NCBI GenBank assembly: GCA_013399305.1
Contig: VXAI01000116.1
Location: 1,170,131-1,234,130, forward strand
DNA from: Rostratula benghalensis
Taxonomy: Eukaryota; Chordata; Aves; Charadriiformes; Rostratulidae
Reading direction: 5' to 3'
DNA length: 64,000 bases
Shown: piece after piece, positions 48,201 to 64,000 of the stretch
Numbering within the stretch: the stretch's first letter is position 1
Layout: every line of letters begins with the position of its first letter
Notes under the pieces: model-generated
What the model saw: only the letters and a program-made list of their open reading frames with translations
Told to the model about the DNA's origin: nothing
Database searches by the model: none
Made by a program: the position numbers and the translations under genes

Positions 48201-51200
48201 CGACGCCGTGAGCTGGCGCTATGGATGTGCACAAGGGAACCAGGTAACAACAGGCTGAGTAGTCCTCTTCCTGAACGTGTTAGGCCTATGTTTTTCTCAT
48301 TCACTTTATTGTATCACACACATGACCAGGATGGAATTCTTGACCAGATTTTATTTAATTTACTTATCTGAAAAATGATCAATGCTTTCCTATTCCTTGA
48401 AACCCCACAGTTGAATAATTATTGGACAGACACTGTCTATAATTAATACAAGTAAAAAGAGAAAACACCCTGTGGTTCAGACTTCAGAAAGTAAAACATC
48501 TGAAAAAGCACATAAATACATCTTAAAAAATTACTGTCCTTGCAACCTCGTTATTCAGAGATGTTTCTCACAGTGTTGTACGATAGCTCAGGAAATGAAC
48601 TACAGATGCAACTGGGGGGTGGGGATGGGAGACTCAAATTTCTCTCCTAGAGCCATGTTCCAACTACTTTGTCCTGCACTGGAGCACAGCAAGCTATCCA
48701 TAGAGTTTTAGAAGACACAACTCACTGTGCAGATGATGAGCAGTAATCCTGGCACTAAGACTGCAACTCAGCGTCTTTAATATTAATCTCTGCTTGCACA
48801 CACCAGAGATGTTCTCTCTTCTTAAGCACACAAAACTAGGAATATCCCCAAACTTTTTTGTTCCATTTGGGAGCTTTTGATACTGCAGAAAATGTTGCCA
48901 TAATCAACTGGTGCTTAAACATTAAAAGAAAAATAATATTAAAAATTCATACTTAGTTTTATCTCTCTGATATTTAACAAACAACTGTCACTTATACACC
49001 TTAACAAATCTAAAGCATTGCTTCTATTATTTCCAATGTGAATTCACAGGTGCATGGCATTTTTCAGAGCATCTGAACACCTTGAAGAACTCTGTTTATT
49101 CAAAGTGTTTTGCAGTAGCCTGTGGCTCATATCAATACTACTGGGATTTTGGCTGGTGCAATCTGCAAGTTGCACAGAACTTGGTGCATTTGGTCATTTT
49201 TCAGCTTTATATTGCTACAATAACCAGAGGATGACAAATGCCCCAACTATCTTCAATTTGCCTTTGTGACATACCTGAAAAATGACCTTGAATACTTTAT
49301 TTTCCAGTTAATTGGCACAATGGCCACAACCATTTCCTGAATAAGGCACTTAATTTGCAAAGTCAGAAGCCAAAAAGGAAGTTATTCACTAAAAGCTAGT
49401 TAATTGTCTTCTGCATCATGAAGTCCTTGAAGAACCTCACCAGTGGGGGACAAAACTTGCTTGCTGACTGTTTTCTTAGTTATTTTACATGATTGATTAT
49501 AAACATTCCAGCTTATAGTCACAAATAGCAACAATTGTTATGAGAGGAAGCACTAAGTTAATCACTATCAAAGCCCTCAAAAATATATATATATAAAAAA
49601 AATTNNNNNNNNNNNNNNNNNNNNNNNNNNNNNNNNNNNNNNNNNNNNNNNNNNNNTCCCCCCCGTAGAAGCAGTTTTGATGTTTAGTATAAATCCAAGC
49701 AGCCCCCCCCCCTCCTGCTCTTCAGGTTTGGTATTTGGCCAAGCTGAACACCCCCCCCCAACAAGGACCTGCAAGGTGTATTACTTGAAATGCCACGGGT
49801 TTCATACAGTAGGCAGGTATTTACAAGGTTTTCAAAGGTTAATTGCCCCCCCCAGAAAAGTGATTAAGACACCTTTCAACCCCAAATCCAAACCCCCCCT
49901 ATTATCCAAGGTGTCTTCATGTTTTTCTAGAGGTCTCAAACTGCAAGTAACAGACCCTTTTACGTGCAGAACCTGTGCCATTCCTGCCCCCCCGATACAG
50001 CGTCTGCAATGCATAGATGTTGCAATGAGGTTGCCCCCCCCTTCTCTTCATTCAAAGGCACATGTTCTTCAAGAGAACCTCCCCCCCTAGCTCATAGACT
50101 ACAAGTCCAACAAGGCTGAGATGATGCCCCCCCCACAAGTACAGGGAAGAAAGCAAACACGACATTTACTCACACCCCCCCAAGAGCTCAGTGCATAATA
50201 AACATGCCTGATGCACTACGGCCCCCCCTGATTTTCATCATTTCCAAAGTATCCCAAGACAAAGGTTTCCCCCCCTGTACAGTTTTGTTATAATTTTGGT
50301 GTTCTTACAGACAAACCCCCCCTCCTTATACTAAATCTTCTCTACAAGGCCACAAATGCCTGCCCCCCCAAAAGAGGAACACAGAGTCCTCAAATAGCCT
50401 CCTAGGGAGCCCCCCCCCTAGCAGGAAGTCAAAATGTGCCACAAATATCTTGCCGCCCCCCCCGCTTCCATATGGATTTCTGCTTGTTGGCTACTTTGCA
50501 ACACCCCCCCAAATACTGCCACCTGTCATGCAGAAAGAAACAGACGTCAACCTTGCATCATCTAAAAGGACATACACGTCTGAATTGCTGGTTTGTACCA
50601 CATGCCACCCCCTACAATTAACACGTCAAGTGAACTACGCACAAGAATTATTCTAGTTACAAAGGCACAGAGTACTGCATTTTCTCCAGGACACCATAAG
50701 GAACTCCCAAGTAGACAGCACATATGTTTTTCTTGGAGAATGCAGCATCTACATGAAGATCAAATGAGAAAACGAAGACATTTTCCAACTGCTTATGTGA
50801 AAAAAAAGTCAGCAAGCAAAAGAATTTAATTACCCCCCCCTTATCTGTATAGGTGTTACTTAAGTTTTCTCCTCTGGCTCCCCCCCTTCTGCAGTCTCTC
50901 TCACAAGTTTTAAAATGAAGTCAAGACCCCCCCTAGACCACATTGTAGCATATTTAATGAGAGGTACCTTGATCCCCCCCTCTGAAGTCAAGATATCAAA
51001 GTATCAGAAGATCCTGAATACCCCCCCCTTTTTTTCCGAACTGTTAAAGCCTGACATATGCAGAAACCCCCCCCAGGGAACTGCACATACTGAATCAAAG
51101 ACCGAAACCTACAGCCCCCCCACTGTCTGCATCAGAACTATTTCACCACCACTTCCAAGAACCCCCCCGTTTGGAAATAGTCAGCTATTATTATTATTAT

Positions 51201-62100: not shown

Positions 62101-64000
62101 AGTTTTATGTCACCCCCCCTAATCAAAACTGATATTACCCACCCTATTACTTTCCAGTTCATAAGAAAAGTTAATCTAAGGTATAAGTGGGAATATCACC
62201 ATCAATCCCCCCCAGTTTACGGAATATCACTGTTTTCAGCAATATCATCTTACCCCCCCCGTCATAGTGAAGGAGTGACCTGCAACACCAGAAGGATTGG
62301 CCCCCCCTTGCCTCAAAGAGACACAGGTTCTGCTTCTAAGCAGTTTTCCCCCCCTTTAGGGCTCTGACCAAACTGACTGGTCCTCAGCCAGGTACCCCCC
62401 CAAGAGGAAGAGCCGAAATGGGAATGGAGGTGGCTTTCTACCCCCCCCACTGTTGTGCCAGACGGCTGCCTGCTTACCTGAAGTCTGCCCCCCCCAGCCA
62501 AAACAAGATAAAGAAGTCAAGAACCATATCTTCAGCCCCCCCCACTCTTTGATCCAGTTCTGTTTATTTTTAATGCAATTGCCCCCCCCAGAATTTCCAT
62601 TTGCCAATACAAGACAAATCACTTTCAGCCAGCTGCTCTACCAACAAGCTCAGAAAGGGCTTTCTGAACAGCATCCTTCGTGCCACTGTGACAGCTAACC
62701 AGAGGTAAGTACTGGAAGAAATTATTTCAAAATAGCAAAGTATCCACAATATGCCTGGAGGTAGAAGAGACAAAACCCCTGTGTATCTTACTGCAGCCAA
62801 GCATTCCTTGCTGCTCTCCCCCCCTAGATGTTCATGCAAGCTGCAGAACATGACTCTTATTGACCCCCCCCGTCTTGACAGACATCAGTATAGATGACTG
62901 AGAAACCTGTACCCCCCCGTGAGTTTCCTCTGTGGGGCAAGAAATGGCAGCATGCTTTCCCCCCCGATTCCTTGGCAATGCTCTTGCAAACTGAGGGGGG
63001 AAGTTCCCCCCCAACTCTCATAGCAGGAAAATGCCCCTTCTGGCTGCAGGCTCCCCCCCGGTCTACATATCTTGTCCTTCTCTAAAGAGAGGCAAGCACC
63101 CCCCCCAAACAAAACCCTGAACACCCTTGCTCTCCAAAGTACGTGACCCCCCCCAGAAAAACCTACCAGTCTTCCTGCTTCCCTCAGCAGTTCCAAGGCT
63201 CCACAGCATTTTCCTTGCCTTTCCCATCACACCTCTGCATCCCCCCCCCTGCCATCCTGTGCTTCTCTTTGGCAGCAGGGGTGGGTTCCCCCCCCCAAGG
63301 AGCTGGGGGTCTACCACCTTTGTTGGCACTTTGTCCTCTCCTCTGGAGGACACTGAGTCTGGCAGAAGCCACCACATCCCCGTAGACCTCTGAAGGTGCT
63401 GCTCAGCTCTCAATGGCGTAGCGCTCGCAGCCCTTATAACAAAACCCCATGCTGTTGCTGGGGCCACTGAGGTGACATGGGGTTTGCAGGGCTGGAAGGT
63501 GACGTATGTCAACGGGAAGGAACCCCCCCACTCCTTCCTGCTGCTCAAAGCGCTGCCAGGCTGCTCTGCCCCCCCCAAAATCCCAAGGCAACTACTGGTG
63601 CAGACCCGCAGCCATGCCCCCCCCCTGGCCCCATCGAGGAAGGGATGGCACAGCAGCCTCTGCCCCCCCCGGGCAGGCAGAAGCATCATCTCCTTCGTGA
63701 TTATACAAATCCCCCCCTATCTGCCCTTACTGTTTTCTAATAAAGTTACGAAGCAAGCAGCTGGCCTCTGCGCAGGACGCGACATGGGAAGGTTTTAGGG
63801 TGGTCCCCCCCAGAGTGCAGGGTCTGCTCTGCTGCTCTGTTGGGGCAGGGGCCCCCCCCCAGGTCCTGAGTAGTGACTCCCCTCGATATTTTGCCCATCC
63901 CCCCCGACTAATTAGCTGTTTGCCCTCTTGTCACTGGTTTATACCCCCCCCCGACCAGCATGGCCAAGACAGCGTGGTCTTGCTGAGCTCTTCCCCCCCA
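56166..64000. other. Upstream intergenic DNA, overwritten by the C7 lattice; no gene recognised
   Basis: Between lattice blocks the sequence looks like ordinary non-coding bird DNA. About 70 bp in every 470 bp is lost where blocks are dense, so small exons or RNA genes could be hidden. The numerous Pro-rich (plus) and Gly-rich (minus) open frames come from CCC/GGG codons made by the blocks. In mammals the next gene in this direction is NKX6-1, and I see no homeobox here. Confidence 0.55.

What the first reader, a model, noticed from the sequence alone, without database searches (positions are those of the whole stretch)
49658..63999. Seven-base C blocks on an exact 47-bp lattice across 14.3 kb
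Blocks of CCCCCCC start at 49658 + 47k without phase drift over 306 periods. By hand count about 216 sites are occupied. No tandem-repeat process keeps an exact period through unrelated unique sequence, a CpG island, a microsatellite and a CR1 copy without sharing any other base. Nucleosome phasing or DNA-curvature signals are statistical, not exact. The simplest reading is a data-processing fault or deliberate in-silico edit of this contig, not a biological system.
Basis: partly seen in the sequence, partly recalled or inferred. Interest (0 to 1): 0.9.

Follow-up and report, generated by a model that had tools for sequence, protein, structure and literature searches.

The report
Computer artefact: C7 blocks every 47 bases
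A 14-kb stretch of what looks like bird DNA has had seven bases overwritten with C at fixed 47-base steps, which fits a data-processing fault or edit of one assembly piece and not anything in the animal.

Summary
The lattice starts one base after the window's only N gap (49605-49656) and runs to the window's end; no period-47 signal lies upstream. In a CR1 retroposon copy, the 8 blocks replace seven bases in place: they match two unedited CR1 copies at 32% of positions, against 81% for spacers and 80% for skipped sites. The CR1 reading frame runs on across two blocks, with two residues swapped for Gly-Gly each time. Insertion, a satellite or polymerase error would not do this. It is an in-silico overwrite by coordinate, more likely made at contig level than later. 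I could not decide between a fault in the public assembly and a later edit of the window, because 20 identical requests to the held genome did not complete. One oddity is left: the 90 skipped sites are clustered, and their run ends mostly carry a natural-looking C. Not a real feature.

The parts
49605..49656 (.). 52-base N gap, the only one in the window: border between two assembly contigs
49658..63999 (+). Lattice of 7-base C blocks at 49658+47k: 216 of 306 sites occupied, 40-base unedited spacers
55433..56150 (-). CR1 retroposon copy carrying 8 C7 blocks; shows that blocks overwrite bases in place
50511..50832 (.). Example of an unedited island: 6 consecutive lattice sites skipped (50551-50786). 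There are 15 islands of 4-6 sites in all
54050..55300 (.). CpG-rich stretch (limits set by eye), crossed by the lattice without phase change
   Evidence: limits not computed

Best explanation
The lattice is an in-silico artefact. A program that counted bases along the contig right of the 49605-49656 gap overwrote 7 bases with C (or with G on the other strand) at every 47th base and left 90 of 306 sites alone. Shown: exact phase, start at the contig border, and, in the CR1 copy, replacement in place at 8 blocks and natural bases at 8 skipped sites. Inferred: that the other blocks are replacements too, and that the overwrite happened at contig level before scaffolding (about 0.65) rather than later in this window only (about 0.3). 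Speculative: a packing fault. A 47-mer in 2-bit code takes 94 bits. Forty bases fill exactly 10 bytes, and the remaining two of 12 bytes can hold the other 7 bases. If those two bytes held all ones and G is coded 11 (coding recalled, no call), one strand reads G7 and the other C7.
For: 216 of 306 sites, no drift. Starts one base after the only N gap, with no period-47 signal on the other side. In the CR1 copy, block positions match the other two copies at 34 of 105 aligned cells, skipped sites at 84 of 105, spacers at 957 of 1183. The CR1 protein reads [38 protein letters not shown] where bird relatives mostly read YS, SP or GP, and RRA, in frame through the first two blocks and up to the third. 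Bases left and right of the blocks do not look like natural neighbours: C|G joins 11, independence 10.4, adjacency about 2.6.
Against: Skipping is not random (15 runs of 4-6 sites against 1.5 expected), and the outer skipped sites carry a natural-looking C at the first block position (40 of 49; interior 10 of 41). A plain overwrite does not explain this, so the true rule of the process is unknown. The Markov join test gave z = 1.5, not zero, against 5.4 for true neighbours. One skipped site (54405, CCCCCAG) could be a partial block. Replacement was shown directly at 8 of 216 blocks only. The own genome was never reached.
Confidence: 0.97

Rival explanations
1. The public assembly is clean and the window alone was edited later, for example as a planted control or by a handling error. 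(This shares the overwrite with the best explanation and differs in where it happened.)
For: Exact coordinates, one letter and one period fit a short script. No comparable lattice was seen in IMG/VR or in the returned part of GTDB.
Against: The start coincides with a contig border to within one base, unlikely for a window-level edit unless it was chosen so. The skip pattern seems to depend on the natural sequence, which a simple plant would not show.
Confidence: 0.3
2. Seven Cs were inserted every 40 bases (homopolymer insertion or adapter joins) rather than overwritten.
For: None beyond the 40+7 spacing and a weak excess at the joins, z = 1.5.
Against: CR1 alignment without length change at the blocks, reading frame kept across two blocks, no CpG depletion at the joins.
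Confidence: 0.01
3. Real DNA: an i-motif or nucleosome-phasing array, or a satellite with only C7 conserved.
For: C7 tracts could in principle form i-motifs (general knowledge).
Against: No shared base outside the seven phases. Exact phase across unrelated sequence and inside a retroposon, blocks all-or-nothing with one doubtful exception among 306 sites, start at an assembly border.
Confidence: 0.002
4. Sequencing error such as dark-cycle poly-G in two-colour chemistry.
For: Poly-G in reads is a known error (recalled, no call).
Against: Read starts are random, so read errors cannot keep one phase over 14.3 kb (inference).
Confidence: 0.01

Closest known systems
Assembly or post-processing artefacts of draft genomes
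   Same: Begins at a gap, confined (within the window) to one contig, no biological unit, in-place base changes.
   Different: I found no described artefact with exactly 7 Cs every 47 bases: one search gave 0 papers; one search gave 1,123 papers for either of 2 loose terms, 15 listed, none relevant by title and abstract start; one search gave 7 papers, none relevant by title and abstract start.
Pilon local reassembly (PMC4237348)
   Same: Default K is 47, and it works from gap flanks (passages seen).
   Different: The passages describe replacement by read-supported sequence and shortening of gaps, not periodic C blocks. The shared number may be chance.
Poly-C/poly-G stretches in bacterial draft contigs
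   Same: Long C or G runs in public assemblies, some at contig ends.
   Different: Those are C-rich stretches that happen to hold four C7 at this spacing, not a lattice through ordinary sequence.

Membership tests
In-silico overwrite artefact | Exact coordinate period across unrelated local sequence | tested here: met
   216 of 306 sites in one phase; which sites are skipped may depend on local sequence
In-silico overwrite artefact | Replacement without length change | tested here: met
   CR1 DNA and protein alignments, 8 of 216 blocks
In-silico overwrite artefact | Bounded by an assembly unit | tested here: met
   Left side: starts one base after the only N gap. Right end lies outside the window
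In-silico overwrite artefact | Absent from raw reads or from another assembly | not tested
   Own genome did not answer 20 identical requests; raw reads not available
Tandem repeat or satellite | Head-to-tail copies sharing a unit sequence | tested here: not met
   Only 7 of 47 phases are biased; Tandem Repeats Finder reports no 47-base array in 45000-64000
Insertion of C tracts | Flanks contiguous once the C7 is left out | tested here: not met
   the Markov join test alone is weak (z = 1.5)

The most novel reading that the evidence does not exclude
A systematic, so far undescribed fault in software that stores sequence as packed 47-mers overwrote two of twelve bytes per 47-mer. If so, other contigs of this and other assemblies made with the same tool carry the same C7 or G7 lattice, counted from their own contig ends, and the skip pattern reflects the tool's bookkeeping.
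Probability: 0.15. Interest if true: 0.35.

Novelty: not a real feature. Interest (0 to 1): 0.1.

Why it matters
It has no biological meaning, but 1,512 bases (216 x 7) of this contig have been overwritten, and most of them are wrong (in the CR1 copy only 32% of block cells agree with relatives). Gene models, alignments, k-mer statistics or sequence models built on it will be wrong there. If the fault is in the public record, it should be reported and searched for in sister contigs.

Tried and rejected
Insertion instead of replacement: rejected. Tandem repeat: rejected. Independent random skipping of sites: rejected. 'Every natural C at the first block position is spared': not supported as a strict rule, because sites 55627, 55815 and 55956 are edited although both other CR1 copies have C there. 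All three lie within two sites of a skipped site, so a rule with a dead zone remains possible but untested. For all 122 a script took the least C-rich match: 110 were 80% C or more; the other 12, read by eye, are C/G- or C/A-rich and mostly low-complexity, one with Ns. Coding genes in the lattice: no Pfam match among 10 ORFs or in all six read-through frames; no PDB match for one ORF and 3 of the 6 frames. These nulls are weak: the CR1 ORF itself, which has 1793 database relatives, also got no Pfam match. Rfam on the whole window: none. One CR1 query in phages: none. One spacer 26-mer in IMG/VR: none. Papers: (listings and abstract starts only); PMC4237348, passages only.

Full report
OBSERVATION. 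The finding is exact. Of 306 sites at 49658+47k, 216 read CCCCCCC and 90 do not. Runs of seven or more C number 218 in 49605-64000 (two off the lattice) and 4 in 1-49604. The pair C7-N40-C7 occurs 208 times, against 0.01 expected from shuffles. The upstream rate of C7 predicts 0.037 hits at 306 sites. Among periods 15-300, none stands out in the upstream 7-kb windows (|z| up to 5.2), while period 47 stands out in C in the windows that hold the lattice (12.7 and 14.3). Phases 7-46 have ordinary composition. Tandem Repeats Finder sees no 47-base array in 45000-64000.

PLACE. The only N gap of the window is 49605-49656. The first block starts at 49658, one base after it. The next lattice position to the left lies inside the gap. 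The contig left of the gap has no such signal. The last site in the window (63993-63999) is occupied, so the lattice probably goes on to the right.

WHAT WAS DONE TO THE SEQUENCE. The stretch 55433-56150 is a CR1 retroposon copy: it aligns to two copies upstream at about 74%, and its minus-strand ORF matches bird proteins, several of them named as reverse transcriptases (Morphnus, Limosa, Mycteria, Grus, best 120 of 1793 listed). In the alignment, counted by class (gap and N cells set aside): 8 occupied blocks match the two other copies at 34 of 105 cells (32%), 8 skipped lattice sites at 84 of 105 (80%), spacers at 957 of 1183 (81%). Blocks here are therefore replacements of seven bases, and skipped sites are untouched. 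The protein alignment shows the same. Where most relatives read [24 protein letters not shown] (or GPQH), the window reads [24 protein letters not shown], with the frame kept across two successive blocks, 47 bases apart, and up to the third (RRA to WGG). Across the whole lattice, a C before and a G after a block occur together 11 times, as independence predicts (10.4), not about 2.6 as for true neighbours. A Markov join test gave z = 1.5, against 5.4 for true neighbours and -0.1 for triplets seven apart. The join tests are weak by themselves; the CR1 evidence decides, for 8 of 216 blocks directly.

SKIPPED SITES. The 90 skipped sites form 33 runs: 17 of one site, 1 of two, 6 of four, 7 of five, 2 of six. 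Independent skipping would give 1.5 runs of 4-6 sites (15 observed) and 17 runs of 2-3 (1 observed). At least two edited sites lie between skipped runs. No skipped site looks like a partly written block except perhaps 54405 (CCCCCAG, in the CpG-rich stretch). The first base of the site is C in 13 of 17 singles, 14 of 16 first sites and 13 of 16 last sites (the double counted in first and last), but in 10 of 41 interior sites. These Cs look natural: 2 of 40 are followed by G; a C put on random sequence would be followed by G in about 22% (p = 0.003). So the choice of sites seems to have depended on the natural sequence in a way I cannot reconstruct. This is the one part that a plain overwrite does not explain.

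MECHANISM. A coordinate-driven overwrite of one contig is established as far as the sequence alone can do so. The source is not. Start at the contig border favours a fault in the assembly process before scaffolding; a later edit of the window remains possible. A speculative route: 47 is a k-mer size in use (Pilon's default K is 47; passages of PMC4237348). In 2-bit code, 40 bases fill exactly 10 bytes and the other 7 bases fit the last two of 12 bytes (arithmetic). If G is coded as 11 (recalled), two bytes of ones would read G7, or C7 on the other strand. Nothing here tests this.

SEARCHES WITHOUT RESULT. No Rfam, Pfam or PDB match was found; PDB covered one ORF and 3 of 6 frames, and Pfam missed even the CR1 ORF, so these nulls are weak. 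The held genome of the window was asked 20 times with the same request and did not answer (last). Literature searches listed nothing on such a pattern.

VERDICT.

Noticed in passing
49658-63999: Skipped lattice sites occur singly or in runs of 4-6, almost never 2-3, and the outer skipped sites carry a natural-looking C at the first block position (40 of 49).
   Followed up: partly
10047-10285, 13094-13764, 23503-24228, 27778-27830, 42205-42313: Further CR1 retroposon pieces upstream of the gap match the CR1 copy in the lattice.
   Followed up: partly
P0012, P0035, P0040, P0050, P0083: Grus japonensis proteins named 'cAMP-dependent protein kinase inhibitor alpha' match a CR1 fragment: probably misnamed retroposon pieces.
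   Followed up: no
P0002, P0003, P0018, P0023 and others marked jgi: JGI records hold close relatives of a bird CR1 fragment, perhaps host DNA in metagenomes.
   Followed up: no
L017:18-165, L052:1-148, L064:3679-3826 and others: Several bacterial draft contigs carry C- or G-rich low-complexity stretches at a contig end, which look like assembly or read artefacts.
   Followed up: no
55298-58963: 8 of the 15 unedited islands lie here, right of the CpG-rich stretch. Spacers inside islands hold more CpG than edited spacers (1.34 against 0.77 per 100 bases, CpG-rich stretch left out); not tested further.
   Followed up: no
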